Virus record (IMG/VR): IMGVR_UViG_3300032092_000015 | Span: 1-64,000 of that record | DNA length: 64,000 nucleotides | Direction: 5' to 3' (one strand) | DNA from: a virus | Shown: positions 9,868-61,375 of the stretch, one piece after another | Position numbering within the stretch: position 1 is the stretch's first letter | Layout: the number at the start of each line of letters is the position of its first letter | Made by a program: the position numbers and the translations under genes | The notes under the pieces: model-generated | Told to the model about the DNA's origin: nothing | The model's input: only the letters and a program-made list of their open reading frames with translations | Database searches by the model: none

Positions 9868-11265
9868 TTACTTTTTGAATCTTTTTGCAAATTCTTCTTT
9901 CATACCATCTACGTTGTATGGTAATTTAGAAACTTTTTCTTCAGCTTTAGCAGATTCATTAACTACTTCAATTTTTTCCATTACTGGAGCAGTTTCTCTT
10001 AAATCTCTTGTTTGCCAGAAGTTTCTTACTTGATATTCAGTTTCTAATTTATGATATTTAGACTGGGCAAGTAATTGATTCTTTTTGCTTTCAGATAATT
10101 TATTCCATGTTTCTCTATATTCAGCAGGCATAGCTTTGATTACCATTGGTTCGTTTTCAACTGGAGCTCCAGCTACTGCATTATTCCATAATGCATAGAT
10201 TTGAGATTCAGTTAAGAAACCTTTACCTTCAACAGCTTTGGTAATTTTTGCTTTTGCTTCATCAGTTAAAGCATTGAATTCTTCAACTTTTGATTCAGAA
10301 ATAAATTTAAAGAAGTTTGGAGTTGTTGCAGGTTTTGCAGTTGCTTTTTCAACTAAAATTTGTAATTTCTCAGTGATTGCTTTCTTATAAGCATCCATTC
10401 TATCAACTTCTTCAGTTACTTCTTTACCAATATTTTCGCCTTCTGCTTCAGAATCTTTAATATCTTTTTCTAATTCTTTAGAATCATCTTCAGCTCTGTC
10501 TTCAGCTTTAGCATATTTAGTGCCTTCGCCATCTACAACTGGAGGTGTAGTATCTTTTAATTCTGTAGATTTAAGATCTTCAGCGTGTGTGCCAGTTTCG
10601 CCAGCAGCTTCAGTTACTTCTTTACCAATATTTTCGCCTTCTGCTTCAGAATCTTTAAGATCTTTTTCTAATTCTTTAGCTGTATCTTCGATAGCATCTT
10701 CACCCGTTGGTTGTTTTTTGCCATCAAATTCTACTTTTGGAGTTTTGTCATCAGACATTTTCTTAATTTTTTCAGCAGGTAAACCAGCTTCTTCTCCATC
10801 AGCTTCAACTAATAAGTTTTTATTTACTGATTCAGCAATATATTCAGCATACTCAGTTACTTTTTCTAAACTTTCTTTTAAATAAGTAACATACTTAAGC
10901 ATATTATCATGAGATGTTGCACCTTCGTTAAATGCCTCAGCTAAATAGTTTGAGTATTCTTTTACTTGGTTTACTGATTCACCAATTTTTTCACTGTATT
11001 GAATAGATTGGTCTAATTTTTCAGCAACATGATCTCCGTGTTGAATAGACTCGTCTACTTTTTCAGCTAAATAATTGTTATATTCAATTACTGAATTCAT
11101 TTTTTCAGCTAAGTATGATGAATATTCTTTAAGATTTTCAACTTCTTTAGCAAAAGTACCTTCGTTCTTTTCCTTAAGTGATTCTTTAATACCCTTCATC
11201 TCTTCTGCTAAGTACTTAGAATATTTGTTAAAATCTTCTGTACTTACAAATCTAGATTGTTCCAT
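9868..11265 (-). other. gp22: Possible internal translation start giving scaffold alone
   Basis: Within the protease-scaffold frame an ATG at 11265 (M-E-Q-S-R-F) lies just after the protease domain and is preceded by AGAAGAAAACAAA, one of the few purine-rich leaders here. It would give a 465-residue protein corresponding to a free gp22 scaffold, as in the nested Nu3 scaffold of lambda. Inference; a processed fusion is the alternative. Confidence 0.4.
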
Positions 11266-11856
11266 TTTGTTTTCTTCTATGGTTTGTGTTTGGTTGTCTT
11301 CTATACTATTTATCTCATAAATTAGAATATCGCCTTCATCTTCAAAACCAAAAGCCTCATTTACTCTTTTTAATTCAGCATTAGCAAATCCAGGATCTGC
11401 AACTAAATCGTATGTAAATAATTGTTTGATTTTTACTTTGCCGTCTGATTCAACGACACCAGCTGCTCTAGATGAGATATGAAGAGGTACTCCAGCATCA
11501 ACTAATGCTTTTGCTTGTTTACCAGCATCAGTATCAAGTAGCCTAATTCTACCCATTACTTTTTTGCTTTCTTTGTCATAAGTTAATTCTTCAATAACGT
11601 GTGATACGTTTTTAAGAGAAATATCAAATGCTTGAGGGTGATCAAGTTCACCAAGTAATTTTGATGAACCTATTTTAGCCTGTAGAGCTTCGATTTGAGG
11701 AAGGTATTCGCTTTCAGTATAGATTCTGTTATTTCTATTCTTAACACCAATCTCACCAAAACAGCCTTCTAGTACATAAGCACCAGAATCCTCTTGGTTG
11801 AAGGTCAACGTACTATTTGACCTTTCTAGAATAAGTAGTTTACTTTGTGGAGTCAT
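9868..11856 (-). CDS. gp21: Prohead protease gp21 fused to coiled-coil scaffold
   Basis: 662 residues from ATG 11856 (a GTG at 11868 would add four). Residues about 1-180 are the gp21 protease: V-L-E-G-C-F-G-E, L-L-G-E-L-D-H-P with the catalytic His, I-S-S-R-A-A-G with the catalytic Ser, and D-L-V-A-D-P. Residues about 200-360 are a coiled coil with a repeated Y-S-x-Y-L-A-E unit; residues 380-500 are acidic with a near-exact duplicated segment. T4 carries protease (gp21, 212 residues) and scaffold (gp22, 269) as adjacent separate genes, so this is a natural fusion. Position between core protein and gp23 is exactly the T4 place of 21-22. The C-terminal 160 residues contain F-I-S-E, Y-A-L-W and other helical segments. 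Confidence 0.88.
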   Translation of the reverse strand: MTPQSKLLILERSNSTLTFNQEDSGAYVLEGCFGEIGVKNRNNRIYTESEYLPQIEALQAKIGSSKLLGELDHPQAFDISLKNVSHVIEELTYDKESKKVMGRIRLLDTDAGKQAKALVDAGVPLHISSRAAGVVESDGKVKIKQLFTYDLVADPGFANAELKRVNEAFGFEDEGDILIYEINSIEDNQTQTIEENKMEQSRFVSTEDFNKYSKYLAEEMKGIKESLKEKNEGTFAKEVENLKEYSSYLAEKMNSVIEYNNYLAEKVDESIQHGDHVAEKLDQSIQYSEKIGESVNQVKEYSNYLAEAFNEGATSHDNMLKYVTYLKESLEKVTEYAEYIAESVNKNLLVEADGEEAGLPAEKIKKMSDDKTPKVEFDGKKQPTGEDAIEDTAKELEKDLKDSEAEGENIGKEVTEAAGETGTHAEDLKSTELKDTTPPVVDGEGTKYAKAEDRAEDDSKELEKDIKDSEAEGENIGKEVTEEVDRMDAYKKAITEKLQILVEKATAKPATTPNFFKFISESKVEEFNALTDEAKAKITKAVEGKGFLTESQIYALWNNAVAGAPVENEPMVIKAMPAEYRETWNKLSESKKNQLLAQSKYHKLETEYQVRNFWQTRDLRETAPVMEKIEVVNESAKAEEKVSKLPYNVDGMKEEFAKRFKK
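10411..10679 (-). repeat. 71-bp direct repeat within scaffold
   Basis: 10411-10481 and 10609-10679 are identical except for one base (offset 198). They encode two copies of the acidic segment K-E-L-E-K-D-(I/L)-K-D-S-E-A-E-G-E-N-I-G, in frame. A recent internal duplication. Confidence 0.9.
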
Positions 11857-11876
11857 ATTTATAGACACTATGTTTC

Positions 11877-36932: not shown

Positions 36933-37478
36933 TTATTTAGCATCTATTGATAAGAAAACGCTGTTTCTAATTTCAATATTATTATAACCAACTTGCTTGT
37001 CCTGATCACCGACGATTGTAGTAGCTGATACGAAGAGTGCAGTGTTTGTCATTCCACCAAGCTTACGATCAAATTTGCTAGCGTCAACATCATCAGCAAA
37101 ACCAATATTAATTACAAAATCACTTTTTAAACTAACAAAAAGTTCTGTACCTGTTGGTGTATTTAATCTATTAACAACATCGGCAATCCATTGTGAATTT
37201 GATAAAGTTGCTGTAATATAAACTATAGCTTCTTTATCTTTTACAACTTTCATTACTTCTTGTTCAATGATTTTAGAACCATCGCGATCTGCCCAGTATG
37301 ACCAAATTTCATTTAGTTCAGCTAAAGTTGCATCAGCATCACCTTCATATTTAATCTTTTCTACTTCTTTCTTAAAGGCAAATAGAACTTTTCCAATAAT
37401 ACCTTTAGCTCCGTAGATTCCAGTTAACTGGTATGCTTTTTCAGCAATAAAGTTTTCGTATAGCTTAATGTGTTTCAT
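36933..37478 (-). CDS. Putative packaged head protein with capsid-targeting-like N-terminus (1)
   Basis: 181 residues. Begins M-K-H-I-K-L-Y-E-N-F-I-A-E-K, containing the exact F-I-A-E of T4 internal proteins, where gp21 cuts after Glu. The rest is an alpha/beta domain without recognised catalytic motifs. First of a run of similar genes with 5-base gaps. Confidence 0.7.
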   Translation of the reverse strand: MKHIKLYENFIAEKAYQLTGIYGAKGIIGKVLFAFKKEVEKIKYEGDADATLAELNEIWSYWADRDGSKIIEQEVMKVVKDKEAIVYITATLSNSQWIADVVNRLNTPTGTELFVSLKSDFVINIGFADDVDASKFDRKLGGMTNTALFVSATTIVGDQDKQVGYNNIEIRNSVFLSIDAK

Positions 37479-37484
37479 ATCTTA

Positions 37485-38054
37485 TTAATATTCGTTGGCA
37501 CGACACCATTCAACGGCATCTTTAACTGTTTTTAGTTCTTGGTCATATCCACTTAAATCGTAAATTCCGAGAATAGTTTTGCCATCGTCATTTAAATAGA
37601 ATGAAAATTGCTCTAGTTCTCCATCATGTCTAGGTGATTGCGCTTCTAATCCATTTTCAAATTTCACAACATGTGGAAACTCTTCATCTGCATCATATCC
37701 CCAAGATAATGATTCTACGTTTTTAGCCTTAGATAATTCTTTAAACAATTTTACTAAAATTGCTGGTTTTTCTGGCTTAGAAGCTTCATTAATAAAGTTT
37801 TCATTAGCAAAATCTGGTTTAACAATAACCCAATATGGGCCTCTGCTAGTACCAACAATTCTATTTTGATCAGTATCTAATGCTCCCATTTTCACATCAC
37901 CAATAACAGATTCTTTATTGTCTTTGATCCATTTTGAGCATGATGTTCCATTTTGAAATTCAATAACTGGATTTCCGTCAACAGTAACATCAAGTACTTT
38001 ATATTGTTTCCTAGCTTCATTAATGAAACTTTCAAATAGTTTTACGTGTTTCAT
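37485..38054 (-). CDS. Putative packaged head protein with capsid-targeting-like N-terminus (2)
   Basis: 189 residues from ATG 38054 (an in-frame TTG at 38063 is rejected because it overlaps the upstream stop). Begins M-K-H-V-K-L-F-E-S-F-I-N-E-A. A second copy, E-N-F-I-N-E-A, occurs near residue 90, dividing it into two halves of similar size that could be separated by the prohead protease. The C-terminal half contains E-D-E-L-type and W-G-Y-D-A-D-E segments. Function unknown. Confidence 0.7.
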   Translation of the reverse strand: MKHVKLFESFINEARKQYKVLDVTVDGNPVIEFQNGTSCSKWIKDNKESVIGDVKMGALDTDQNRIVGTSRGPYWVIVKPDFANENFINEASKPEKPAILVKLFKELSKAKNVESLSWGYDADEEFPHVVKFENGLEAQSPRHDGELEQFSFYLNDDGKTILGIYDLSGYDQELKTVKDAVEWCRANEY

Positions 38055-38056
38055 AT

Positions 38057-39385
38057 TTACCAAGCGTAATTTAAGTTGTCAATTTTCTTAATGTAATCTT
38101 GAAGATTTTTAGCATGTTGTTTCATACTACCTTCATAGTAAGATCCGGTATAACCAGCTGCTTTTTCTCTCTCTGCGTTAGTAACATCGCCAACATATCT
38201 GCCATACTCATCTAGAATGTTTCTCATTAAGTTTGCAGCATCACTCATTCTAACTTCTCTTCCTTTTGGATCTGTTCCGATAATAGGTTCATCATATCTT
38301 CCCTTTAAACCTTTAGCTAAACCATCTTTGATTTGATCTGCGATAGTTTCAATTGCTTTAGATACAAGAGAATCTAATGGTAATTCAGCAGCTTTAGTAG
38401 CTAAAATTTCATTATATCTTTTCAAGTTTTCAGCTTTGAAATCTTTGTCGTTTTGGAATGCGATTGCTCCTTTTTTTGCAGCTGCTCTTTCAGATTGTAT
38501 AGCTGCTGTAGAATATCTTGCTCTAAGAATTTCTAGGTCTAGACAATATGCTCTATCTGCAAGCTCAACAACTTGTTTTAAGCTTGAAATTCTAGAACCG
38601 TATGCAGAACTAGCAGAAGATTTTGCAATACCCGCTGAATCATCTCTTTTGGTTGTCTTTAAAATTCTATTGTTATTTCTGGCGCTATATCTACTTTGCC
38701 ATTCAACATTCATCCATTCATTTTGACCATCAGTGATAGCTAATAAACAGTTTGCTGGAATCGTTCTAGTTGACCAATCGTCTTGAGAATATGGATTCTC
38801 TTTTTCATTAGTTGTAAAATAGAAATATACAGCGCTTGCTCTTTTTTCTTTTTTAGCAGTTTCTGGATCCATTTCAATAATATCAATATCTTGAACTTTA
38901 TCAAGTGCAATTTTAGACATTGCATAGAATGCTTTTGGAAGATCTTTTGGCATTTTTGCGGCACCAAGTAAAATACTAGCAAGTTTTGCTGATGCAAATG
39001 CTTCATTTATAGTACCTTCATTTAAGTTCTCAACAAATTCTGAGAATGATTCAACTAATCTTTTCATTTCGAAACGAGGTTTATTTTGATTTTCTTTTTC
39101 TTGTTTAATCTGGTTATAAATTTTAAGACCATCTTTGCTTAAAGATATACCATCTTCGGAAACGTTGAAAAATCCAGCGTTTCTCTTTAGCCATCTTTTT
39201 TGGTCTTCTGAAACTTTAGAAAGAATAGCATTGAAATCTTCTTTAGAAATCTTACCATCTTTTACAGCTTCAATTACAGTATTTCGAATAGTAGCATGTT
39301 TTCCAACTGTCTTAGCTGGATGATTCTCAGTATACTGTCTTTTAATAGTAATTCTGGATTCATTTAAAAACTCTTCAAAATTCAT
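38057..39385 (-). CDS. Putative packaged head protein with two capsid-targeting-like peptides
   Basis: 442 residues. Begins M-N-F-E-E-F-L-N-E-S. A second cluster at about 107-131 reads M-K-R-L-V-E-S-F-S-E-F-V-E-N-L-N-E-G, then I-N-E-A, so residues 1-125 could be a removable pro-part with helices and the rest a mature domain. Residues 130-442 are helical and Ala/Lys-rich, with K-G-R-Y-D-E-P and D-A-A-N-L-M-R. No enzyme family recognised. Confidence 0.7.
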   Translation of the reverse strand: MNFEEFLNESRITIKRQYTENHPAKTVGKHATIRNTVIEAVKDGKISKEDFNAILSKVSEDQKRWLKRNAGFFNVSEDGISLSKDGLKIYNQIKQEKENQNKPRFEMKRLVESFSEFVENLNEGTINEAFASAKLASILLGAAKMPKDLPKAFYAMSKIALDKVQDIDIIEMDPETAKKEKRASAVYFYFTTNEKENPYSQDDWSTRTIPANCLLAITDGQNEWMNVEWQSRYSARNNNRILKTTKRDDSAGIAKSSASSAYGSRISSLKQVVELADRAYCLDLEILRARYSTAAIQSERAAAKKGAIAFQNDKDFKAENLKRYNEILATKAAELPLDSLVSKAIETIADQIKDGLAKGLKGRYDEPIIGTDPKGREVRMSDAANLMRNILDEYGRYVGDVTNAEREKAAGYTGSYYEGSMKQHAKNLQDYIKKIDNLNYAW

Positions 39386-39416: not shown

Positions 39417-40862
39417 TTATTTCATTTTGAAACCTAGTTTACCATTACCTGGGTTTGTTGATGATACGTTCGGTGCTTCGAATGAAAGTTTTGCATTAGC
39501 ATCGCTAAATCCTTTTAAATAAAAATGAATCTGGTCTCTTTTAAGATCCACATCCATATATAATTGTTTAACATCTAATTTAGCAACGATGGTTCTTAGT
39601 GTGTTAATATAAGTATCTCCAACACCAAGTTTACCATTTAAAACATCAATAAGTTCTAAGCTTAATGAGTAACTAAATAAGCCAATATACTTTTTACCTT
39701 TATCTAGTTTGTCCCATTGAACTTTGTCAAATTTGTCAACTCCTCTACCAGAGGATTTAACCAATGGTTGAACGTAAGTTGTAAAGAATTCTTCTCTACC
39801 AAGCTCAGTCATTTTAGCTTGTATAAAACTTTCTAGAGATTTTTCATCTAATGGAACATTTCCAATCAATCCCTTTAACACAGAAATTGATGGCGTATTC
39901 ATAAATTCAGCGCCTTTAATATAACCATCGACTACTGAATTGTTTTCTATAATTTTAAATAAATCGTACAACTGAACTTCTGAAGTTTCAGTAAAATTTT
40001 CAGCTTTTAGATTTTTAATAATATTTGATAGGGTTGGGGCTGCTCCAGATTTATATTTTGAAGATATACCATATCCATCAATATAAAAATCTACTAGTGG
40101 ATTATTTCCAGAAGGAAATGATATTCCATGTTGAGTTGTTACCATATTTAATAGTAATGCAGCTCCTAGAACTTCACCAAAATCTTTACCGATTGTGTTT
40201 AGATCTGTTACACCAAGAGCATCAATTGCTTCTCTAACATTTTCATCATATCCGATAGTTTCAGAAAACGCTGAAATTGATAATGGATCTTTAAAATATG
40301 TTGAAGGTTTATGCATTGATATTAAATCATAAAGTTCGATTAAAAAACTTTGCATAAAGAGATTAGAGCTATACTTACTGTTAATTGCGCTTTTAACACT
40401 GTTTGATAAAACTGTAGAATTCATATCAGTGTCTTGTGGTAAATTAAGAGAAGTTGGAGTAAGTTCTTTAGATTTAATAGATCCTCTTGGTGGATTATTA
40501 TCAACAAATTTAATAACATCTCCGATTGAAACTTTTAAATCTTTTACATCTTCACCGAATGTTACGATGAAAGTTGTAAATTTACCTGAATTAGAACCAT
40601 TTGAATATTCTCCAGGTCCAGCAGTTACGATATCGAATTTTGATGCTCCTAATTTATTAAGAGCATCACTGATTGATTTTAGTGCGCTTTTAGAATCTCC
40701 ACCTAAATCAAATCTTAAATCTTTTCCACCATTCTTTGTATTAATTCTACCGGGTCCTAATAATTTCTGCATTGCCGGAAGTACTGTTCCTTCAATCGAT
40801 CTTGCTGCTTCATTTAATGCAAGTTGAAATCTTGCTCTAATATCTCCGTAAGTTTGTCCCAT
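39417..40862 (-). CDS. Large protein of the packaged-enzyme block, unknown
   Basis: 481 residues; not recognised. N-terminus F-Q-L-A-L-N-E-A could be a divergent processing site. Residues about 255-285 contain V-D-F-Y-I-D-G-Y-G-I-S-S-K-Y-K-S-G-A-A, a pattern of a Asp, strand, then S-x-K typical of some restriction-nuclease-like cores; this is only a hint. Overlaps the nucleotidyltransferase-NMNAT gene by one base, so it is probably functionally linked to it. Confidence 0.7.
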   Translation of the reverse strand: MGQTYGDIRARFQLALNEAARSIEGTVLPAMQKLLGPGRINTKNGGKDLRFDLGGDSKSALKSISDALNKLGASKFDIVTAGPGEYSNGSNSGKFTTFIVTFGEDVKDLKVSIGDVIKFVDNNPPRGSIKSKELTPTSLNLPQDTDMNSTVLSNSVKSAINSKYSSNLFMQSFLIELYDLISMHKPSTYFKDPLSISAFSETIGYDENVREAIDALGVTDLNTIGKDFGEVLGAALLLNMVTTQHGISFPSGNNPLVDFYIDGYGISSKYKSGAAPTLSNIIKNLKAENFTETSEVQLYDLFKIIENNSVVDGYIKGAEFMNTPSISVLKGLIGNVPLDEKSLESFIQAKMTELGREEFFTTYVQPLVKSSGRGVDKFDKVQWDKLDKGKKYIGLFSYSLSLELIDVLNGKLGVGDTYINTLRTIVAKLDVKQLYMDVDLKRDQIHFYLKGFSDANAKLSFEAPNVSSTNPGNGKLGFKMK

Positions 40863-42718
40863 TATATCTTATTTATAAATTGTTCAAATGTTAAAATATC
40901 TTCTTCAACTTGAATAGATTCCATAGCTGCAAAAGAAGCATCTAATTTCTCTTTTAAATCATTAAACATTCCGTGTAGAGAACGTGGAGTCATTTTATTA
41001 AACTCTTTTACATTACCATCGCTAAGTGCTTGTCTAACTTTGGTAGCTGAAATATCATCGTCTCCTCTTTGGATTTCATATAAGCCAAATTCAGGAAGTA
41101 CTCCAAGTTCTTGACGATATTTATCATTGTTAACCATATATCCATAAGCTTTCATACGGTCAGTTCCAGTGCCCCATAAAACAGGCTCATAATTAGGTCT
41201 AAGTTCATTAAACATAACATCGATTGCAGCAGAAGGAACAACAATAACTTCTTTTAAGAATCTGTATTCGCTCTGTACATTATTAAACATTTGAATTTGA
41301 GTTTCTACATCATAAGGTCTTTTAATAGCATCCTCTTTCTTAGCAGTTTTTGCCTTAACTAAGAATACAATAACTGGATATCCATTTTGCTTATTAAGTG
41401 TTTCTAATACTTTAACGTGACCTAGTGTAAATGGTTGAAATCTACCAACAAAAATATTTACTTTTTCGCGACCTTGTTCTGGATAATCGATCTTTAATGC
41501 TTCAGTAATTTTTTGGCTATTTGCAACTTTATGATGCATTATAAAATTATGAAAGTCAAATACTGCGTTTTCTTCAGTTGGTTCAACATAGATCTTTTGT
41601 TCAATTTTATCCACGATTTCATTAATTTGATTTAAAACCAACCCTGAAATAATAGTTGATTCCTTGGTTCTTTTCTTTCTAAAACTACCTAAAACTATTT
41701 TATACAATTCAGCAAGAACTGGATTTGAAATATAATCTAGCGTAGTTTCATTTTTAATATATGTTGTATTCAACTTAAATGACTCAATTGTTGCAAAATT
41801 AGCAGAATCAAAATTAGCACCAACATATTTAAATGCATTCTTAGAAAGATATTGATTGTAAATTGCTGAAGTTAACTCAATATATCGTAAATCCGGGTTT
41901 GTTTCGGTTAATTCAATTTCGTCTAAATTAAAACTATTCATATATTCTAATAAATCAACGATGGTGATCTGGTACATATGAGAAGACTCTCTATCGTCAT
42001 TTGATTCATTAAGTCTATCGAATGATTCTAATTTATAGGATTTTACTTTAGTTCCATCAATAAAAGAAACTATTAAACCATCAATTTCTTTATCTAAATT
42101 TTCATTTAATGTACTTTTAGTTAAAGATTGATTAAAAATATGATACGCTTCTCTTGTAAACGTATCTTTATTATATCGTTTATTAAATTCGCCTTCATTC
42201 ATTGAAAGTAATTTAATTAAACGATCTTTTTGTTCTGTGTGTAATATACCTTCAAAAATAACGGGTGGCTTTTGTACACCAAACATTCCTGCCCATTTAT
42301 TAAGAATAGCAGTATCGTTAATAACTTTTCTAGGTTTTCTATTCTCACCTAAAACCTGAATGTGTGTTAATATTAAATAGTTTGTAGGTAAAGTATCATA
42401 TTGATATGGAGAAGCTTCGGCTTCTGGAAGATATTCAAATCCAAATTTCCAATCAATTGGCATATTTTGCTTAACTTCATGTGAAATTGATTGAAAATAT
42501 TTAATGGCAGTTTCATATAAAGAAACCATGGTTCTATCGATTGGAGAAAGCTCTTCACTTGATCCGTTTTTATAGAACTCAAATCCATTTAAACTTCTTC
42601 TAACATATAAAGAAGGGGCTGCGATCTTTTCAGAGACAACAATTTTATCATTCAACATTGAGTTGAATTCATTAATATTTACCGATTGGTATAGATCTCT
42701 TAATTTTTGTAATGCCAT
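40862..42718 (-). CDS. RNA-ligase-like nucleotidyltransferase fused to NMNAT-like adenylyltransferase
   Basis: 618 residues. Domain 1 (about 1-240): motif I S-E-K-I-A-A-P-S-L-Y-V with K31 but with the usual D-G replaced by A-A; motif III F-G-F-E-Y-L; motif IV E-I-D-G-L-I-V; motif V V-K-S-Y-K-L-E. Domain 2 (after about 420): V-G-R-F-Q-P-F-T-L-G-H, the HxGH nucleotidyltransferase signature, and D-I-S-A-T-K-V-R near 565, as in nicotinamide or pantetheine adenylyltransferases. It ends L-T-F-E-Q-F-I-N-K-I, a C-terminal targeting-like peptide. Downstream of a second ligase-like gene by one base. A packaged nucleotide- or RNA-end-processing enzyme is inferred. Confidence 0.75.
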   Translation of the reverse strand: MALQKLRDLYQSVNINEFNSMLNDKIVVSEKIAAPSLYVRRSLNGFEFYKNGSSEELSPIDRTMVSLYETAIKYFQSISHEVKQNMPIDWKFGFEYLPEAEASPYQYDTLPTNYLILTHIQVLGENRKPRKVINDTAILNKWAGMFGVQKPPVIFEGILHTEQKDRLIKLLSMNEGEFNKRYNKDTFTREAYHIFNQSLTKSTLNENLDKEIDGLIVSFIDGTKVKSYKLESFDRLNESNDDRESSHMYQITIVDLLEYMNSFNLDEIELTETNPDLRYIELTSAIYNQYLSKNAFKYVGANFDSANFATIESFKLNTTYIKNETTLDYISNPVLAELYKIVLGSFRKKRTKESTIISGLVLNQINEIVDKIEQKIYVEPTEENAVFDFHNFIMHHKVANSQKITEALKIDYPEQGREKVNIFVGRFQPFTLGHVKVLETLNKQNGYPVIVFLVKAKTAKKEDAIKRPYDVETQIQMFNNVQSEYRFLKEVIVVPSAAIDVMFNELRPNYEPVLWGTGTDRMKAYGYMVNNDKYRQELGVLPEFGLYEIQRGDDDISATKVRQALSDGNVKEFNKMTPRSLHGMFNDLKEKLDASFAAMESIQVEEDILTFEQFINKI

Positions 42719-42719
42719 T

Positions 42720-44000
42720 TTATCTTCCGTATTTAATAATACCCATTAGCTGATTTATTGCAGCAAATGTACCAGTTAATTTATATAGTTTTCCTTTATA
42801 TTTAAACACCAAACCTTCTGATGGAACAATTGATTCGATGCCTCCAATTCTTTCTAAACGAGCTAATTCAGCTTCTACTTTAGAAATTTGAGAAAGGTCA
42901 CCATTTTTTTTAATTTTATCAGCTTCAGTTTTAATTTGATTATGAAGTCTCTGCATTTCTTGGTCTGGATTTGCCGCTAATAAGTTTGAAACGTTCTTTA
43001 AAACAACAGATCCTAATTCAAGGAAAATGTTTTCAAACGGCATGATGTTCTCTTTATACTTCTTTTTAGCATCAGTTTTTTCGAACTCTTGTAGTTTTTT
43101 ATATTCACTAGCTCCAATTTGTTTACTAACATCGCGCATATTGAGAGTTTTCTTGTCATCAAATGCCCAACGTTTAACCAAACCTTCTTTAGTAATGTCA
43201 TCTAAAGTTGGAAATGTTGAAGCAATTAATTCTCTCCACCACATTTCATGATACTTAGAAACCTCATCAGTATCTGCCAAACTATATCTTTTTTGAAGAT
43301 CTTCAATTTGCTTCATGAAATAAGACTTTTTCTCTTCAAAATTAACATTTTTACCAATTTGCAAATCTTGCGGAGGAATAATTTGAAATGTTTTTTGAAC
43401 ATCTGCTGTAACTTTATTAAGAGCTGCTTGAACTTTTCTAGCAACACTAGAATCAGATCCAATTTGATTACCATTACCATCAGTATGGACAATTCCATGG
43501 AATTGAATTACATCGCGATCATAATTAATTACATTTGAGTTACCTGAATAAATTAACTCCATATTCATAAATGAAGTTCCATTATTAAAGTCCTCTAAAT
43601 CAGCACCCTTTAATGAACCAAGTGCACTTGCTAGGTCTGATGCGGCATAAGTGAATGTATCTCTTACTCCAGCTGAAGGGTGATCCTTAAACATATCTGT
43701 GATTCCCTTTAAATCAATTGGATTCGCCATTTGACCTTTATTTCTAGCAAACAAAACTCTACCATCTTTTACCGTAACAAATAGATTCTGTCCATCTGTT
43801 TTTTCAGTCGGTGCCTCTTCAAAACTTAAATTACCTTGAAGCGCAGAATCAACTAAATGGCGTAAATCGCCAAATGTTAAATCATGATCGTCAAAAGGAT
43901 GCATCATATGCCCGGCTGCACCACCTTCCATTACTAATTCTGGATATTTGCTATTCCATTGTTCTAGTAAAAAGCTGTTAAATGTATGTAGTTTTTTCAT
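42720..44000 (-). CDS. Ligase-like nucleotidyltransferase with capsid-targeting-like N-terminus
   Basis: 426 residues from ATG 44000 (an in-frame TTG at 44006 is rejected). Begins M-K-K-L-H-T-F-N-S-F-L-L-E-Q, the packaged-protein peptide. Motif I E-K-T-D-G at 66-70 with catalytic K67, F-M-N-M-E-L-I-Y as motif III, and C-terminal E-G-L-V-F-K at 395-400 followed by Y-K-L-T-G as motifs IV and V. This is the covalent nucleotidyltransferase fold of RNA and DNA ligases and capping enzymes. A long helical insertion (about 210-370) separates the motifs. Substrate unknown. Confidence 0.75.
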   Translation of the reverse strand: MKKLHTFNSFLLEQWNSKYPELVMEGGAAGHMMHPFDDHDLTFGDLRHLVDSALQGNLSFEEAPTEKTDGQNLFVTVKDGRVLFARNKGQMANPIDLKGITDMFKDHPSAGVRDTFTYAASDLASALGSLKGADLEDFNNGTSFMNMELIYSGNSNVINYDRDVIQFHGIVHTDGNGNQIGSDSSVARKVQAALNKVTADVQKTFQIIPPQDLQIGKNVNFEEKKSYFMKQIEDLQKRYSLADTDEVSKYHEMWWRELIASTFPTLDDITKEGLVKRWAFDDKKTLNMRDVSKQIGASEYKKLQEFEKTDAKKKYKENIMPFENIFLELGSVVLKNVSNLLAANPDQEMQRLHNQIKTEADKIKKNGDLSQISKVEAELARLERIGGIESIVPSEGLVFKYKGKLYKLTGTFAAINQLMGIIKYGR

Positions 44001-44009
44001 AATCAAAAA

Positions 44010-44054: not shown

Positions 44055-46655
44055 TTATACCGTTTCCTGATTAATCATTGCGTGGCAAACGTTTACTGAG
44101 ATCCATTTAGCTTTATCAAAAAATTCTTTTGCTAATTTTTTAATTTTAGGCTCTTGGTTAGAAGGTAATTTATTCTCTTCGCCATCAGCTTCTTCATTCC
44201 ATGATTTAACTGCAATTTTCCAAATTGTATCAAAATCACGGCTTTTTTCATAATATTTTGAATTTCCTTGTCTGTCTATATGATCGTGATAATCTGCCCA
44301 ATACTGTACATCGATTCCTTCATTAGAAACTGATTCTCCAAGAGAACTTGTTAGAGTTCCAACGCATGCACCATAATCATCTCCACATTTCTTAAGAATA
44401 CCATCTACAACTTCTTGAGCTTTCTCAGCATCAAATTCTTCTCCAAATGCTTTTTGTAAAACATTAAATGCATATTCTTTAAATTCGTCATCTGATTTAA
44501 TATCAGCTTCAGAGATTAATGATTCATTTGCGAAAGATTCAGCTGCCATACCATAACATTCAGTAAATTCATCAATATCTAAGCCATAGTGGTCAACAAC
44601 TTCCATGATTTCATCTGGAAAATCCATTTCATCATTGCGCATTGATTTTCTAAGACCAGTTACTTTATCATAATTATCATATACGAATGAAGCAACATCC
44701 ATACATTCTGGATTATCTCCTAATTGAGAAATAATCCAATCTAAACCTTTAGCTTTTGCTTCATTAACTTCTGCTGATTCTTTAATACCAAGCTCTTTTA
44801 AAGATTTAACTTGCTCGCCTTTATCTTCTCCAGTTTCTTCGTCAGCATACCATAAAAGTCCTGCTTTAATTAATCTTCCATAGATTTCAGATGCAACTAA
44901 CTCAAATGGAAAAGAGTCTGATGAATTTTCCCATGTTGTAGCTACGTAATCTGGATCAATCCAACCAATACCTCTTTTAATAGATTTCTCCATATCGGCA
45001 TAGTCCATTTCAAATTGCTTTACAGCACCTTCATTAACTTCTAAAGATTCGTTTTTCTTTACATAATCTTGAAGATCTTTTACTTCGTCTTTTAATTCTT
45101 TTGGTATATTATTTGTGAATGTATTCCAATTAAAACTTGCTTTAACAATCATAAACAAAGGTAAGCCAGAATTTCTTTTACCGAATTCAGATCTTTCAAT
45201 CCAATCTAAATAATATTCAGCTAATTCTTTTGACATTTTAATACCTTCTGCTCTTGAAGTATTTCCTTTAATAATATCGTTAAGTAATCTCTTAGCCATG
45301 CCATGTGAACCTTCGTTGACTTCAACTGATTCCATTTTAGCATTTGCAATTACTTCTGCGATAGTTTCTAATAAATCTTCAGTTTTCTTTCTAACTGGAA
45401 TAAGATCCATGTCCACTAATTTATTAAGAACTTTGTGTGCAATGATTCTACCACCTTTAATAGAAACTACACCTTCAGTAACTACTGATTCTTCTACTTT
45501 ATAAGTTTTACCTTGGAATTCGAATTCGTCTTTACCTTCTTCTTTTGCCTTTCTAACCGCATCTCCAAAAGCATTTCCTTCTTCAAGTTCCTCGGCTTCT
45601 TCTACTTTATAAGTTTTACCTTGGAATTCGAATTCGTCTTTACCTTCTTCTTTTGCCTTTCTAACCGCATCTCCAAAAGCATTTCCTTCTTGAACTTCTT
45701 CATCATCTTCATTAACGGTCTTAGCACCATGTACTTTGTATGTTTTTCCGTTAAATTCAAAAGTTTTTTGACCTTTATTTCTTGCAGCAAAAAGAGCTCC
45801 AGTAAATGCATTTCCTTCAGAAACTGCTAATTCAAGATCTTTATCTTTACCAGCAACTGCATCGTTTAATTCAGCTTCTAAAGCTTTTTTCTTAGCAGTC
45901 ATTGCTTTTAATTCATCTAATAAAGCTGCTTTAGCATCGCCTTCGGCTGCTTTCCATTCTTGAGCTTTAGCTGCCATTTCAGCAGTAATTTTGCTCCAAT
46001 CATTTTGAATTTTATTAATTGAACGAGCTTCAAAAATATATGCTTCTTCGATGAATTCTTCTAGACCACTATCTTTTCCCCAGAAATCTTGAATCATTTT
46101 TTCAAGATCCTTCTTTTTACCAACATATTCAACTTCTGGATAGTTGGCTGCAGGACCATTCATATTTACGATTTTCCACTTAATACCCTTTTTCTTACAA
46201 AAATCAACTAGACCTTTTTCATTAGGCTCAATAGCATCTAGAGTAACTGTAGCTTCATATAAATCTGCTTGAACTTCTTCAGCATCATCAGCATCTTCTT
46301 TTTCAGGCTCTCCTAAATCTTTGATTTTACCTTCGATTTCTTCAGCGCGGTCTTCTTCAACTTTTTTAAGAACATCTTCAACTGCATCTTTTTCTTTACC
46401 CATCGCCATGATTTCTTTTTCGATTTCTTCAGCGCGGTCTTCATTAAAAATTTTTGCAACTAGTGCTCTTTTCTTTTCTTCGTCAAGTTCTGACATGTCT
46501 GAAATTTCTAACTCATCTAAGATAGCTGAAATTTTCTCAAGAGATTTAACTCTTTTACTTTTATTATCTTGTTCAGTCTTTACAGCATCCTGCTGTTTTT
46601 TCATTTCTGAAAAAGATTTAAATGATGAAATTCTGTTTAGTTCCATTTTATTCAT
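44055..46655 (-). CDS. Putative capsid polyprotein of short domains
   Basis: 866 residues. N-terminus F-K-S-F-S-E-M fits the targeting peptide loosely. After a charged 130-residue coiled coil the chain is a string of 35-90-residue domains, each starting right after a V/L/I-x-E-G or -A site: A-V-S-E-G, V-Q-E-G, L-E-E-G, V-T-E-G, V-N-E-G (twice), V-N-E-A, I-S-E-A and S-N-E-G. Three tandem copies begin G-N-A-F and end G-K-T-Y-K-V; two are identical at DNA level. Other domains include one with H-G-M-A-K-R-L-L and one with K-R-G-I-G-W-I-D-P-D-Y-V. Such sites suit the gp21-type protease. Own promoter and terminator. Confidence 0.75.
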   Translation of the reverse strand: MNKMELNRISSFKSFSEMKKQQDAVKTEQDNKSKRVKSLEKISAILDELEISDMSELDEEKKRALVAKIFNEDRAEEIEKEIMAMGKEKDAVEDVLKKVEEDRAEEIEGKIKDLGEPEKEDADDAEEVQADLYEATVTLDAIEPNEKGLVDFCKKKGIKWKIVNMNGPAANYPEVEYVGKKKDLEKMIQDFWGKDSGLEEFIEEAYIFEARSINKIQNDWSKITAEMAAKAQEWKAAEGDAKAALLDELKAMTAKKKALEAELNDAVAGKDKDLELAVSEGNAFTGALFAARNKGQKTFEFNGKTYKVHGAKTVNEDDEEVQEGNAFGDAVRKAKEEGKDEFEFQGKTYKVEEAEELEEGNAFGDAVRKAKEEGKDEFEFQGKTYKVEESVVTEGVVSIKGGRIIAHKVLNKLVDMDLIPVRKKTEDLLETIAEVIANAKMESVEVNEGSHGMAKRLLNDIIKGNTSRAEGIKMSKELAEYYLDWIERSEFGKRNSGLPLFMIVKASFNWNTFTNNIPKELKDEVKDLQDYVKKNESLEVNEGAVKQFEMDYADMEKSIKRGIGWIDPDYVATTWENSSDSFPFELVASEIYGRLIKAGLLWYADEETGEDKGEQVKSLKELGIKESAEVNEAKAKGLDWIISQLGDNPECMDVASFVYDNYDKVTGLRKSMRNDEMDFPDEIMEVVDHYGLDIDEFTECYGMAAESFANESLISEADIKSDDEFKEYAFNVLQKAFGEEFDAEKAQEVVDGILKKCGDDYGACVGTLTSSLGESVSNEGIDVQYWADYHDHIDRQGNSKYYEKSRDFDTIWKIAVKSWNEEADGEENKLPSNQEPKIKKLAKEFFDKAKWISVNVCHAMINQETV
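45489..45691 (-). repeat. Two identical 95-bp tandem repeats within polyprotein gene
   Basis: 45489-45583 and 45597-45691 are identical (period 108 bases, 36 residues). Each encodes a G-N-A-F-G-D-A-V-R-K domain. A third diverged protein copy (G-N-A-F-T-G-A-L) follows upstream in the gene at about 45710-45815. Confidence 0.95.
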
Positions 46656-51184: not shown

Positions 51185-51829
51185 TTAGAGCGCTTCCAAT
51201 GAGCTTAAGTAATTAGCTAGGAAGTAAGCGTCCACCAAATCATCAAGCGGCTTCGGGACCGACTTCCCAATTTCAAGTGTCTGTAGATACTGAAAGAACT
51301 CCAGGTCGGACAAATTTTGGTCTTGTAAACGGTTTTCGACAAAAACGTCCCACAATTCCCTTTTCCCCATATTTCCCTTTCCAGCATGCTTCTTAATTGT
51401 CGATGGTGCAACTGTAAGAATATTACTAATATTATCAAATGAATTTATTATCTTATACTTAAAAATAGCGGCGGCAGCAGCCATATCAATAAGATTATTT
51501 GTTCCACCATTTGAACCGTAAGAAACACCCTCAAACCCAAAAATACAAGGACCTTCGTTAATTTTTGTTTTGATTAACTCAATCATTGAATCCGCCATAT
51601 TAATAAAGCGATTGATTTTTAAAAGTTCTTGAGATGAAAAATCTTTAGATGTCTGATAGACCGGCTGATTTACAAGAACTACATTCGGTAATTGTGAAAT
51701 ATGGGATTGCATAGCTTGGTCTGCTTTTGTACCAGTACCAGGCTTTAAAAAAGAAATAAAGCTGAGTTTATCATTAAGTACTACAACTCCGGGAGAGTTA
51801 AGTGAAAAGTCAATTCCTATAAAATTCAT
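51185..51829 (-). CDS. RuvC-like Holliday junction resolvase
   Basis: 214 residues with the RNase H-like fold of RuvC family resolvases: I-G-I-D-F-S-L-N-S-P-G at 4-14 (D7), F-G-F-E-G-V-S-Y-G near 98 (Glu), and P-L-D-D-L-V-D-A-Y-F near 192 (catalytic Asp pair). T4 uses unrelated endonuclease VII (gp49) to resolve branches before packaging; a RuvC-like enzyme may take that place here. Start is coupled to the upstream gene stop (51830). Confidence 0.78.
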   Translation of the reverse strand: MNFIGIDFSLNSPGVVVLNDKLSFISFLKPGTGTKADQAMQSHISQLPNVVLVNQPVYQTSKDFSSQELLKINRFINMADSMIELIKTKINEGPCIFGFEGVSYGSNGGTNNLIDMAAAAAIFKYKIINSFDNISNILTVAPSTIKKHAGKGNMGKRELWDVFVENRLQDQNLSDLEFFQYLQTLEIGKSVPKPLDDLVDAYFLANYLSSLEAL

Positions 51830-52198
51830 TTAGATTCTTTTACCAAGAGCAGCACCTAACGCAGCACCAACTAATCTTGAGGTTAATAAATCATACATTA
51901 ATCCAGATTGGATTCCTAATACTTTACAAACAGTTTTACCAATTGAAGAACCAAGTGCAAAACCAGTTAGACCGCCAATAATAGATCCTAATAAACCTTC
52001 ATTGGTTAGTTCCTCGTTGAATCTTTCAAAATCATAAGATCCATCTTCATTTTTATATGAAGCAACAAATTGTTCTAGAGCAGCTTCTACTTTAGCTTCT
52101 AATTCAGGAGTCCATTCTGAAACAAGTGACTCTTGTAGGAGTTGAATATCTTGTTCTGTTACTTGCTGTTCTGATAAATATTGTTCAAATGTTTTCAT
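51830..52198 (-). CDS. Capsid-targeted glycine-zipper protein
   Basis: 122 residues. Begins M-K-T-F-E-Q-Y-L-S-E-Q, close to T4 M-K-T-Y-Q-E-F-I-A-E-A. Residues 12-85 are acidic and helical; a second site L-T-N-E-G near 86-90 precedes a hydrophobic glycine-zipper half (L-L-G-S-I-I-G-G-L-T-G-F-A-L-G and G-A-A-L-G-A-A-L-G-K) that would insert in or oligomerise at a membrane. Cleavage there would free the hydrophobic part in the mature head. An ejected pore or membrane peptide is a reasonable inference. Confidence 0.7.
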   Translation of the reverse strand: MKTFEQYLSEQQVTEQDIQLLQESLVSEWTPELEAKVEAALEQFVASYKNEDGSYDFERFNEELTNEGLLGSIIGGLTGFALGSSIGKTVCKVLGIQSGLMYDLLTSRLVGAALGAALGKRI

Positions 52199-52201
52199 AT
52201 A

Positions 52202-52210
52202 GTATATATT
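52202..52210 (-). promoter_or_regulatory. Candidate late promoter of glycine-zipper gene
   Basis: AATATATAC on the minus strand immediately before the start at 52198. Only 4 bases separate them, so placement is uncertain. Confidence 0.25.
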
Positions 52211-52760
52211 AGTCTATTTCTAGCACCAAAGAGTACTGATTATAATTAAAAGAAACTGAAAATGTGTTAAATTCAGCAACGTTTTGACTCATATTTAAAT
52301 CAATTTCCGAGATTGACTTCATGATTGGTTGATGAAATCTTGCTGAAATAACATGAATACCTTCCGCATCCATAATTTGAAGTTTTAAATCTTCGGCATA
52401 TTCTTCTTTCTTTGCCCAACTATAATAATATAGAAGAGTATCATTCATTATCCAATAATTAATAAATCCGTCAAGAAGTTGCATCGTTACTGTAAATTCT
52501 CTCTCAACTAAGTTTTGAATTGGCATAGCTCCTCTATGATAATTAATAGTACCATCGTTATTCTGTTGAGTTACTGGGTCGAAACTAATTCCAGGCAAAT
52601 TAATACCTTGAATACTATAATTAATAAAATCTATTGGCTCAGTAAGTATGTTCCCAGGCATTCTGTTCAAATATTTTTTATATTTGTCAGCAACTTCCTT
52701 GGGAATAAAGTTTCTAGGAAACTTAAAGTTGTATAGATTATTTCTACTATTTAAAATCAT
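52209..52760 (-). CDS. Tail tube-like protein (gp19/gp54-like fold)
   Basis: 183 residues, T4 gp19 has 163. Beta-rich with central L-P-G-I-S-F-D, E-R-E-F-T-V-T-M-Q-L and a C-terminal strand F-N-T-F-S-V-S-F-N-Y, comparable to T4 gp19 W-T-V-T-V-M and I-Q-T-F-E-V-T-L-A-L-D-Y. Could be the tube itself or a tube-like baseplate initiator. Overlaps the stop of the next structural gene by one base. Confidence 0.55.
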   Translation of the reverse strand: MILNSRNNLYNFKFPRNFIPKEVADKYKKYLNRMPGNILTEPIDFINYSIQGINLPGISFDPVTQQNNDGTINYHRGAMPIQNLVEREFTVTMQLLDGFINYWIMNDTLLYYYSWAKKEEYAEDLKLQIMDAEGIHVISARFHQPIMKSISEIDLNMSQNVAEFNTFSVSFNYNQYSLVLEID

Positions 52761-58675: not shown

Positions 58676-61375
58676 CTATAATAATCTTTGAATCTCTTTA
58701 TTATGTGTTACTATTCCATTTGCAACAAATAAATCATTATCTTCAACATCCACTCTATAAACAATAAAGCTACCTGACATTTTAATAATGTTAAAGATTT
58801 GAATTTCATTACCATCTTTATCTAATAAAAAGTCTCCTTCAGTTAGTTTATAGGTTTGACCAACTTTCCATAGACCTTCATGTTTATATAAATGTAGGTG
58901 ATCTTCTGATGCAAATAGTTTACCGTCATTGATCGAATAAACAGTATTTATATTAACTGATGCAATAGATTTAACAACAACAGTGTCTTTTGAAATATCT
59001 GCTGTCTTAGAACTCCATTCATAAACCGAAGGATAATCTTTAATCGGCATACCTTCGAATTTTAAACTATATAAGACGTCATTAATTTTTAAATCTTGTA
59101 TAAATTTATTAGAACCATCGGCCATCAATATTTTAGTTCCATATAATAAACAAGGTCCAGTATTTCCTGTGCCTGGCCCTGTTGAAAAACAAGATACTAC
59201 GGATCCTAATGCTCCTGTAAATGAATTAGTTCCTTGTCTAGAATTAGTTCCGTTTATATCACTATAATATCTTCCTGATTGAGCAAATGTTAATGGAGAT
59301 TCTCCATCTGAACTAGTAGATTCAAACATCGTAGATATTGTGGTAAATGAAAGAAATCCAGAGCTAGAACTCTGATAATATCCTTCAGTAAAATAATTAC
59401 CATTACATGCACCAGAAGCATTATTGTCCCAAGATAGTCCAGATAAATATCTAACATAATCTAATGTAGGAGCAGCTCCTTCAAATGATGTTCCATCCCA
59501 ATATCTTCTAACACCAGAATCTCTATACCATCCAGCCGAAGCAAATGTAGTTCCAGTTGAATTTGTATAAATTGCACTACTATTACTTAATGAAGTACCA
59601 TTAACATAGTAAGTTGATTTTGATAATCCAGAAAAAGATCCATTTAAAGAACTACTATTTACCGCAATATTGTAAGCAAGTTGCAATGAATTATTAGATG
59701 GACAAGATTCTCTAGTTGTAAAGGCTGAACCCGTCCAATATCTTACAATTCCAAATTTTTCATAATACCCACTGGTTGCGTATGCTGTTCCAGTGCTATT
59801 ATACAATTTATATCCGGTCGTACTCCAGTTGTTAGTTTCAGTCCAAGACGCAACAAAATCAGTTTTATAAGAGGTTTCAGATGCTTCGCATGCTTGTCCT
59901 GCTGCATAGAAACCATATCCTGCTGTAATATCATTAAGAGATAATGAAGATCCTTCTGTATTCCACTGCATATCATCTTCTCCTAAATAAACAACATATA
60001 CCAATCCTTTGCCCAGTCCCATTTTTAATTCTAAACCGCTATTAACAAGATCACCTGTGTACGGATTTAATAAATTTGCATCTCCACTATAAAATTCATT
60101 TACGCCGTCAACATAAGATTCTAAAACATCAGTCCCACTTGTACCATTACTAAAAGTATATGCGCTGCCTGAAAGAGCAGCAACGAATTTTAAAACAGCG
60201 CTAGATAAAAACTGCCTGTTGTTTGTTGTTTGTACAAGTTGAGCAATTTGATTTGCTTGTCCCAGACCTGGTGAAAATGGATAATCAACTGTTAAATCAA
60301 AACTACATAAATTTGGAACATCATAAGATAAGGCTCCTTTATACCAAGTTCTGCCATGACATAAATACCAACCTTTAAATTTACCTTTTCCTTTTCCATA
60401 AGTAAACGTAAAAGTTGGAACAGTGCCTCCGCTACCAGTAACGGCAGCTTGTTGCGATATTGTTAATGTTCCGGAAACAGAAGTATCTACTAAATCAAAA
60501 TTTTGTGTGTTAAATTCAGCATCAATTGCAATAATCGATCCAATTGGAAAACCACCAATAACATCTTTAGGATCTCCCCATCTAACTCGACCAACATTAC
60601 TTGAATCGGTGTATGCTACATATCCTGGATTCGGAGAATCATTTTGAAATCTATTGACGCCATTTAAAGATACTCCTGAATTAAATATTGAAGTTCTATT
60701 AACAGTCACTCCATTTGAATCTAACTTAAACATTGGAGTATCGTTGACATTTCTTGTTTTAAATAAAACTTCTGAACCAATTGCATTAGATGTTTTTAGA
60801 ATAAATTCCTTAGCATTATTAATATGTTCAAAGCCAAATTCAAATTTAGAATGACTAGTATCGTAAAATAAATTACCAAAAACCTGTTTTCTAGAAGATA
60901 AGTCTGTATTAGATCCATCTATTTCTGAAGAAATAAAAACAAAGTTATTTTGTAATGCATCATTAGTATGAAACGTTTTTACTGAAGTTGTATTTCCAGC
61001 AGTGCTAACTAAACTATAACCGGTTGCAGTATTATCTAATCCTAAAATGATGTTACTTGGATTATCAACAGATTGAGGTATTTTTAAAGTAATATTATTA
61101 GTACCGATATTTGCTAACCAATTAGTTTCTCCTAAAGGACCTTGAGTTCCTTGAATTCCTTTTGGACCTTGTCTGCCAATAGGACCCTGATTTCCAGTTA
61201 CACCATCCGGACCAATACCGCCAGCCCATCCTTGAGGACCTAATGGACCTCCTCCTATTGTTTCAATCTGATCAAAATTCCAATTTAATTTTTCAATCTT
61301 TTTTGAAGACCACCAAGTGTTTGGATTATTTGGATCCAGATCCGATCTGAATATTTCTTTAATATCTAACGGCAT
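58676..61375 (-). CDS. Collagen-like tail fibre with C-terminal Hint domain
   Basis: 899 residues. Collagen-like G-P-x repeats at about 45-85, a collar-type G-W-Y-L-C-H-G-R-T-W near 340, then tandem Y-x-x-S-G-W/Y-Y-x-x-x-G-x-x-R-Y-W fibre units between about 520 and 700. Residues 742-892 form a Hint (hedgehog/intein) domain: C742-L-L-Y-G-T-K-I-L-M-A-D-G, I-N-D-V-L, S-E-D-H-L and the end V-T-H891-N892, followed by only six residues (K-E-I-Q-R-L-L). The fibre should be able to cleave itself at C742 or at N892. Confidence 0.82.
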   Translation of the reverse strand: MPLDIKEIFRSDLDPNNPNTWWSSKKIEKLNWNFDQIETIGGGPLGPQGWAGGIGPDGVTGNQGPIGRQGPKGIQGTQGPLGETNWLANIGTNNITLKIPQSVDNPSNIILGLDNTATGYSLVSTAGNTTSVKTFHTNDALQNNFVFISSEIDGSNTDLSSRKQVFGNLFYDTSHSKFEFGFEHINNAKEFILKTSNAIGSEVLFKTRNVNDTPMFKLDSNGVTVNRTSIFNSGVSLNGVNRFQNDSPNPGYVAYTDSSNVGRVRWGDPKDVIGGFPIGSIIAIDAEFNTQNFDLVDTSVSGTLTISQQAAVTGSGGTVPTFTFTYGKGKGKFKGWYLCHGRTWYKGALSYDVPNLCSFDLTVDYPFSPGLGQANQIAQLVQTTNNRQFLSSAVLKFVAALSGSAYTFSNGTSGTDVLESYVDGVNEFYSGDANLLNPYTGDLVNSGLELKMGLGKGLVYVVYLGEDDMQWNTEGSSLSLNDITAGYGFYAAGQACEASETSYKTDFVASWTETNNWSTTGYKLYNSTGTAYATSGYYEKFGIVRYWTGSAFTTRESCPSNNSLQLAYNIAVNSSSLNGSFSGLSKSTYYVNGTSLSNSSAIYTNSTGTTFASAGWYRDSGVRRYWDGTSFEGAAPTLDYVRYLSGLSWDNNASGACNGNYFTEGYYQSSSSGFLSFTTISTMFESTSSDGESPLTFAQSGRYYSDINGTNSRQGTNSFTGALGSVVSCFSTGPGTGNTGPCLLYGTKILMADGSNKFIQDLKINDVLYSLKFEGMPIKDYPSVYEWSSKTADISKDTVVVKSIASVNINTVYSINDGKLFASEDHLHLYKHEGLWKVGQTYKLTEGDFLLDKDGNEIQIFNIIKMSGSFIVYRVDVEDNDLFVANGIVTHNKEIQRLL
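58700..59152 (-). other. Hint (intein-like) autoprocessing domain
   Basis: Codons 742-892 of the fibre gene. The first Cys, a G-T-K-I block A, an H in block B (E-D-H), and a terminal His-Asn are the catalytic signature; the residue after Asn is Lys, not Cys/Ser/Thr, so protein splicing is unlikely and cleavage of the A-type bacterial intein-like kind is more probable. Confidence 0.75.

What the first reader, a model, noticed from the sequence alone, without database searches (positions are those of the whole stretch)
51830..52198. Capsid-targeted glycine-zipper peptide that may be injected into the host membrane
An N-terminal packaging tag, a charged spacer and a L-T-N-E-G cut site before a G-x3-G membrane-active half. 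Maturation would release a hydrophobic peptide inside the head, available for ejection to form a channel or disturb the membrane.
Basis: inference. Interest (0 to 1): 0.7.

Follow-up and report, generated by a model that had tools for sequence, protein, structure and literature searches.

The report
Protease-released glycine-zipper peptide in phage heads
A T4-like phage encodes a small protein that appears to be carried into the growing virus head by a removable tag and then cut to release a conserved, positively charged two-helix peptide, which may help the phage get its DNA through the host membrane; the tag and cut site are well supported by sequence, the membrane role is a hypothesis.

Summary
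The 122-codon ORF is real and belongs to a large, conserved phage family (93 distinct members collected). Its first ten residues match the T4 IPIII capsid-targeting sequence at the four positions shown to matter (4, 7, 8, 10). Prohead-protease-type Glu sites follow; the last, xNE|G, has Glu in 93 of 93 members and persists as VDE|G in Prevotella Lak phages. The piece behind it is 55 residues (not 33), is the best-conserved part, and has GxxxG spacing above chance. Alone it is predicted as a two-helix hairpin (pLDDT 79). It is basic; the part removed is strongly acidic. Relatives with an unalignable N-terminal part keep cut site plus hairpin, so that is the functional unit. The payload is constant, unlike T4 internal proteins, so a general job such as helping DNA across the inner membrane fits better than counter-defence. 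Not shown: presence in virions, cleavage, membrane activity, ejection. Hydropathy is borderline (1.46). A serious rival is a prohead membrane anchor released by the same cut.

The parts
51830..52198 (-). whole gene, 122 aa plus stop
   Evidence: 193 relatives confirmed among 223 stretches in IMG/VR
52169..52198 (-). residues 1-10, capsid-targeting tag MKTFEQYLSE (E10 also a possible cut, L-x-E)
   Evidence: matches T4 ipII/ipIII MKTYQEFIAE; positions 4, 7, 8, 10 conserved; T4 mapping in PMC9026906
52130..52168 (-). residues 11-23, variable linker ending in the second candidate cut LLQE|S
   Evidence: mean pairwise identity 40%; E23 in 44 of 44; site pattern in 90 of 93, shuffled mean 20.1
51998..52129 (-). 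residues 24-67, acidic propeptide ending in LTNE
   Evidence: 65% mean identity for residues 24-63; part before the cut has net charge -10 to -25 in 93 members
51833..51997 (-). residues 68-122, predicted mature glycine-zipper peptide (55 aa)
   Evidence: 80% mean identity for 69-122; two-helix model, pLDDT 78.9; net charge +3 to +7
51917..51994 (-). helix 1 (residues 69-94), GxxxG repeats at 71-75-79-83-87 and basic strip 84/88/92 (S84 in the window's own copy)
51845..51901 (-). helix 2 (residues 100-118), contains the LTSRLVG motif and the start of GxxxG 111-115-119
52209..52760 (-). upstream neighbour, tail-tube family protein
   Evidence: phrog_45, E 4.7e-9; found upstream in 43 of 45 representative loci
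51185..51829 (-). downstream neighbour, RuvC-like resolvase, starts on the next base
   Evidence: phrog_159, E 3.4e-12; found downstream in 45 of 45 representative loci
9868..11868 (-). head maturation protease, the candidate enzyme for the cuts
   Evidence: phrog_207, E 1.3e-41

Best explanation
The gene encodes a T4-type internal head protein. Its N-terminal tag co-assembles with the prohead core (inferred from the residues mapped in T4). The phage's own gp21-like protease then cuts after E10 and/or E23 and after E67 (inferred from invariant Glu sites). This removes a strongly acidic propeptide, which may keep the payload quiet in the producing cell, and leaves a 55-residue basic glycine-zipper hairpin inside the head (inferred). 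On infection the peptide would leave with or ahead of the DNA, self-assemble through its GxxxG faces in the inner membrane and help the genome across (hypothesis). My estimates: tag and packaging about 0.9, cut at E67 about 0.85, virion retention and ejection about 0.55, membrane conduit about 0.45.
For: Tag: T4 ipII and ipIII start MKTYQEFIAE, ipI MKTFKEF. T4 experiments, as reviewed, put targeting at residues 4 and 7 and processing at 8 and 10 (PMC9026906 section 2.6). In 89 of 93 members with an alignable start: position 4 F/Y 89, position 7 Y/F 87, position 8 L/I/M/V 89, position 10 E 85 of 89. Cut: E before the zipper in 93 of 93, N before it in 91 of 93, P3 T71, V12, I5, L3, M2; the reviewed gp21 motif is L/I-X-E. 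E23 44 of 44. Modularity: members of 216-218 aa with an unalignable N-terminal part keep LNE|G plus the hairpin. Depth: Lak-A1 homologue E 3.8e-12 with IVDE|G and LTSRLV, present in all 15 Lak records that the search returned. Payload: GxxxG enrichment, hairpin, mature net charge +3 to +7 against -10 to -25 for the removed part. Context: portal, protease and major head protein of T4 type in the same window. Precedent: the glycine zipper of T6SS effector Tde1 permeabilises the inner membrane (PMC10240207 abstract and section 7).
Against: Best 19-residue hydropathy 1.46, below the usual 1.6 threshold (recalled), and soluble window proteins exceed it. P3 at the main site is mostly T, not L/I as in the T4 motif. 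Full-length AlphaFold model is poor (pLDDT 55, pTM 0.35). No fold match with E up to 0.001. No match in T4, PTm1, PAU, LR745206, LR756501 or LR756502, so it is not universal in T4-like phages. In Lak the zipper glycines are partly lost while LTSRLV stays, which hints at a specific binding role beyond generic membrane insertion; the Lak gene is also not beside a tail-tube gene that I could recognise. No experimental virion data.
Confidence: 0.5

Rival explanations
1. Prohead membrane anchor: the tag sits in the core, the glycine-zipper hairpin sits in the inner membrane on which proheads assemble, and the cut at E67 lets the mature head go. The peptide would stay in the membrane of the producing cell and not be ejected.
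For: T4 proheads assemble on the inner membrane and detach on gp21 maturation (PMC9026906 passages); SPN3US proheads without protease stay anchored to the inner membrane (PMC7411985 abstract and passages). The cut lies exactly between tag part and hairpin. A constant payload fits an assembly role.
Against: The cut must be reached by a protease inside the prohead, so the hairpin would have to pass the portal vertex; borderline hydropathy argues against a stable anchor as well; T4 itself has no homologue.
Confidence: 0.2
2. Internal structural or DNA-binding peptide: the basic 55-residue piece stays in the head, neutralises DNA or packs against portal or shell, with no membrane role.
For: Basic charge and conserved lysine strip; specific LTSRLV motif kept even in Lak; moderate hydropathy. 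T4 keeps cleaved fragments of gp22 and gp67 in the head (table in PMC9026906).
Against: GxxxG spacing on both helices is typical of helix packing in membranes (general knowledge) and not needed for DNA binding; the net charge is small for a DNA-condensing peptide.
Confidence: 0.25
3. Ordinary small membrane protein of the infected cell (holin-like or superinfection exclusion) whose tag and cut site are coincidental.
For: Glycine-zipper resemblance below cut-off.
Against: Tag residues and cut Glu are among the most conserved features; no holin family match; hydropathy below that of two window ORFs with clear hydrophobic segments, 2.46 and 2.29.
Confidence: 0.05

Closest known systems
T4 internal proteins IPI, IPII, IPIII (capsid-targeting sequence, gp21-processed)
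   Same: N-terminal tag of the same length and key residues; Glu cut sites; T4-type head genes around
   Different: Payload is a conserved glycine-zipper hairpin, not a diverse counter-defence protein; additional acidic propeptide and cut at E67; no homologue in T4
T7 gp14 and other ejection proteins
   Same: Small membrane-seeking protein that leaves the head and makes a channel (PMC8954989 passages); here only proposed
   Different: About 200 aa with four or five predicted membrane helices; here 55 aa, two helices, made from a tagged precursor
Tde1 N-terminal glycine zipper (T6SS effector translocation)
   Same: Continuous GxxxG copies shown to permeabilise the inner membrane and to be needed for delivery (PMC10240207)
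   Different: Secretion system effector, no capsid tag, no proteolytic release described in what I read; sequences not compared here
Pfam Gly-zipper_Omp PF13488 / Rick_17kDa_Anti PF05433
   Same: GxxxG pattern; 28 of 44 members match PF13488 at E up to 0.01
   Different: Window protein scores 20.1 and 18.0 bits against cut-offs 25 and 24.2

Membership tests
T4-type internal head protein | N-terminal capsid-targeting sequence with the key residues at 4, 7, 8 and 10 | tested here: met
   F4, Y7, L8, E10 in the window protein; conserved in the family; T4 rule from PMC9026906
T4-type internal head protein | cut by a gp21-type protease at L/I-X-E | tested here: inconclusive
   E10 and E23 fit L/I-X-E; the main site E67 has T at P3 in 71 of 93, V in 12, I/L/M in 10; no cleavage assay possible
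T4-type internal head protein | gp21-like protease and T4-type portal and capsid in the same genome | tested here: met
   phrog_207, phrog_213, phrog_138
T4-type internal head protein | homology of the mature part to a T4 internal protein | tested here: not met
   no match of the zipper profiles in NC_000866; one search found Lak-A1 and LR756500 with the same profile, so the search works. T4's own internal proteins also differ from each other in the mature part, so this lowers membership little
T4-type internal head protein | present in virions and ejected | not testable with these tools
   no proteomics at hand
Pfam Gly-zipper_Omp / Rick_17kDa_Anti | score above the curated cut-off | tested here: not met
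   20.1 vs 25 and 18.0 vs 24.2
T7 gp14-like ejection protein | about 200 aa, several predicted membrane helices | tested here: not met
   55-aa mature part, two helices; reference values from PMC8954989 passages
T7 gp14-like ejection protein | pore activity in lipid | not testable with these tools
   needs purified peptide
Holin | clear membrane-spanning segment and family match | tested here: not met
   best hydropathy 1.46; no holin family

The most novel reading that the evidence does not exclude
A lineage of contractile-tailed phages, from estuarine and marine T4-like viruses to the 540-kb Prevotella Lak phages, loads a protease-activated glycine-zipper channel peptide into the head. An acidic propeptide masks it, the prohead protease arms it, and it is shot in to open the inner membrane for DNA: a capsid-borne membrane stage of genome delivery in phages whose tail is usually thought to do this alone.
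Probability: 0.35. Interest if true: 0.82.

Novelty: new variant of a known kind. Interest (0 to 1): 0.6.

Why it matters
How the genome of a contractile-tailed phage passes the inner membrane is not fully settled (general knowledge). If this peptide is in the head and is membrane-active, it gives a small, testable candidate for that step, shared by abundant environmental phages and Lak phages. It would also show that the capsid-targeting route serves a conserved general-purpose payload, not only changing counter-defence proteins. If the anchor rival is right instead, it would supply a candidate tether for prohead assembly on membranes, with a matching release cut.

Tried and rejected
Pfam, PHROGs and NCBIfam gave no match above a curated cut-off for the window protein. 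PDB sequence search with the family profile gave only weak hits, best E 0.25; the prion-protein hits at E 2.8 and worse cover only a short glycine-rich stretch and were set aside as chance resemblance. Foldseek in viral and PDB libraries: nothing at E up to 0.001. Bacterial and archaeal genomes: 116 stretches matched a pattern, none encodes a relative, so it does not look like a cellular gene. The full-length structure model was too poor to use. The idea of a general C-terminal capsid tag was tested and not supported statistically: 3 of 309 protein clusters, shuffled mean 2.61, maximum 8; individual cases remain suggestive. The tail-tube neighbour could not be assigned to T4 gp54 or gp19 by pairwise BLAST. 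A statement that nothing is published rests only on the searches, whose listings showed no paper on such a protein; I did not read all listed papers.

In one search the search pattern itself demanded glycines after the site, so G68 and the following glycines are partly built in; the Glu and Asn before it are not. Searches use the same 93; one search counts tag positions in the 89 with an alignable start. The pattern is looser than that (last position E, K, N or D).

Full report
What is there. The window is part of a 95,302-base virus record with T4-type head genes: portal 12301-13914 (phrog_213), head maturation protease 9868-11868 (phrog_207) and major head protein 8256-9737 (phrog_138), all. 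The finding's ORF, 51830-52198 on the minus strand, is 122 aa with an ATG start. It lies between a tail-tube family gene and a RuvC-like resolvase that starts on the next base. In 45 representative loci, one per distinct protein, the RuvC gene was found downstream in all 45 and the tail-tube gene upstream in 43; the other two hold only 329 and 704 bases upstream.

The tag. MKTFEQYLSE lines up residue for residue with the start of T4 ipII and ipIII, MKTYQEFIAE, and with ipI, MKTFKEF (T4 record). According to the review of T4 head work, substitutions in IPIII place targeting at residues 4 and 7 and processing at residues 8 and 10, and Asp at 10 blocks processing but not targeting (PMC9026906, section 2.6, read in full). 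Of 93 distinct family proteins, 89 have an alignable start; in these, position 4 is F or Y in 89, position 7 Y or F in 87, position 8 L, I, M or V in 89, and position 10 E in 85, D in 2, A in 2, while positions 5, 6, 9 and 11 vary. The four without that start are the LR756500 type, where KTFNSFVNE stands 13 residues further in, and three long members. Elsewhere in the window the same kind of tag opens five more genes: 11917-12282, 36933-37478, 37485-38063, 38057-39385 and 42720-44006. That is six of 59 genes against 0.19 expected from shuffles. In a census of 309 protein clusters from the fetched loci, 20 have an N-terminal tag against 3.65 in shuffles, maximum 9 (looser pattern).

The cut sites. 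The reviewed gp21 motif is L/I-X-E (PMC9026906 passages). The family has three candidate sites. First, E10 in the tag. Second, E23, found in 44 of 44 distinct members of the first set, preceded two residues earlier by L, I or V and followed by S 19, G 18, N 6, Q 1; in all 93, a match of that type occurs in residues 16-40 in 90, shuffled mean 20.1, maximum 29 of 200 rounds. Third, E67: Glu in 93 of 93, the residue before it N in 91, P3 T in 71, V in 12, I in 5, L in 3, M in 2. P3 = T departs from the T4 rule, which I count against the reading; the divergent members have I or L there, as in T4.

The conserved unit is the piece after E67. Mean pairwise identities in 44 distinct members: tag 72%, residues 11-23 40%, 24-63 65%, site 81%, zipper 80%. 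Two contigs found through LR756500 carry a 216-218 aa protein whose N-terminal part does not align but which ends in LNE|G and a zipper about 53-61% identical to the others; a third long type of 217 aa came. A profile of the zipper then found one place in Prevotella phage Lak-A1 at E 3.8e-12. Read with TAG as Gln (a choice I made because the frame holds one TAG and Lak phages are reported to use another code, PMC8346664 abstract in the listing), it is a 108-aa protein with KVYDYIVEA, IVDE|GLF and LTSRLV. The Lak protein gives matches in all 15 Lak records the search returned and in LR756500 at E 5e-7 over 92% of its length. In the alignment of nine members E67, G68, G75, G83, L94, G95 and LTSRLV are invariant. 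The same profiles found nothing in T4, Tenacibaculum phage PTm1, Sphingomonas phage PAU, LR745206, LR756501 and LR756502.

What the released piece looks like. 55 residues, 7 GxxxG pairs against 2.28 in shuffles (fraction reaching 7: 0.0008). Predicted alone from 38 sequences it is helix 2-27, loop, helix 33-51, pLDDT 78.9, pTM 0.50. Position 84 is K in 88, position 88 K in 88 and position 92 K or R in 87 of 93; the piece has net charge +3 to +7, the part before the cut -10 to -25. That is the layout of an inactive precursor with an acidic mask (inference). Against a plain membrane reading: its best 19-residue hydropathy is 1.46, tenth of 59 window ORFs.

How it most likely works. Packaged by the tag, armed by the prohead protease, held in the head, ejected, and assembled in the inner membrane. 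The first two steps rest on sequence conservation at experimentally mapped residues; retention, ejection and membrane action are inference. T4 internal proteins are described as a highly diverse set of defence proteins with only the targeting sequence conserved (PMC3012670 passage). Here the payload is better conserved than the tag, so a general task is more likely than counter-defence. A glycine zipper has been shown to permeabilise the inner membrane and to be needed for delivery of a T6SS effector (PMC10240207, abstract and section 7), and T7 gp14 is a small ejected pore protein (PMC8954989 passages).

The strongest mechanistic rival is an assembly role. T4 proheads form on the inner membrane and detach upon gp21 cleavage, and SPN3US proheads lacking protease stay on the inner membrane (PMC7411985 abstract and passages). 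A tag in the core, a hairpin in the membrane and a cut between them would do exactly this. Virion proteomics would separate the two. A third reading, an internal basic structural peptide without membrane role, fits the modest hydropathy and the invariant LTSRLV motif.

Verdict. By kind it works like a T4 internal protein, but its payload matches no T4 protein and no curated family above cut-off; I call it a new variant of a known kind.

Noticed in passing
window 9868-11868: The protease ORF (666 aa) continues after its protease part with six repeats of the form YxxYLAE or close (residues 216-346), which resemble the packaging tag; perhaps a fused scaffold whose repeat the tag imitates.
   Followed up: partly
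window 44055-46655: 866-aa ORF with three repeated units (EGNAF...GKTYKV) and several NE|G or NE|A sites, as if a polyprotein cut up during head maturation.
   Followed up: no
window 36472-36927 and 40862-42718; L006 5570-6458, L089 5507-5962, L114 5519-5974, L119 5516-5974: Tag-like ends at the C-terminus (for example VKTFEQFVFE, ILTFEQFINKI), in the relatives often preceded by an xxE|S site. A census did not find C-terminal tags enriched (3 of 309 clusters, shuffled mean 2.61).
   Followed up: partly
L006 5104-6458, L089 5037-5962, L111 5429-5980, L114 4950-5974: Between the tail-tube gene and this family's gene some relatives carry extra small genes, several with tag-like ends, as if the spot were a cargo island.
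   Followed up: partly
L160 3321-6182, L161 3198-6051: Runs of consecutive small genes, many starting MKSLxxYLxE or similar, right after the zipper gene.
   Followed up: no
L160 2665-3315, L161 2536-3192, L164 2455-3138; window 36472-36927: A shared short motif GMGxVxLP...GSGD[VI]P before the tag-like stretch in the long members; a similar GMGAVKLP...GSGDVP stands in the window protein 36472-36927.
   Followed up: partly
window 23648-24844 and 28735-30144: Two ORFs that look like the two halves of a family B DNA polymerase, separated by ribonucleotide reductase-like genes (judged by eye from the translations, recalled motifs).
   Followed up: no
window 58676-61375: Collagen-like fibre protein whose C-terminal part looks like a Hint or intein-type domain (by eye, recalled motif).
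   Followed up: no
L250 4935-6185: Lak-A1 gene next to the homologue, on the other strand, with an ALNE|L site and long hydrophobic stretches; possibly another processed head protein.
   Followed up: no
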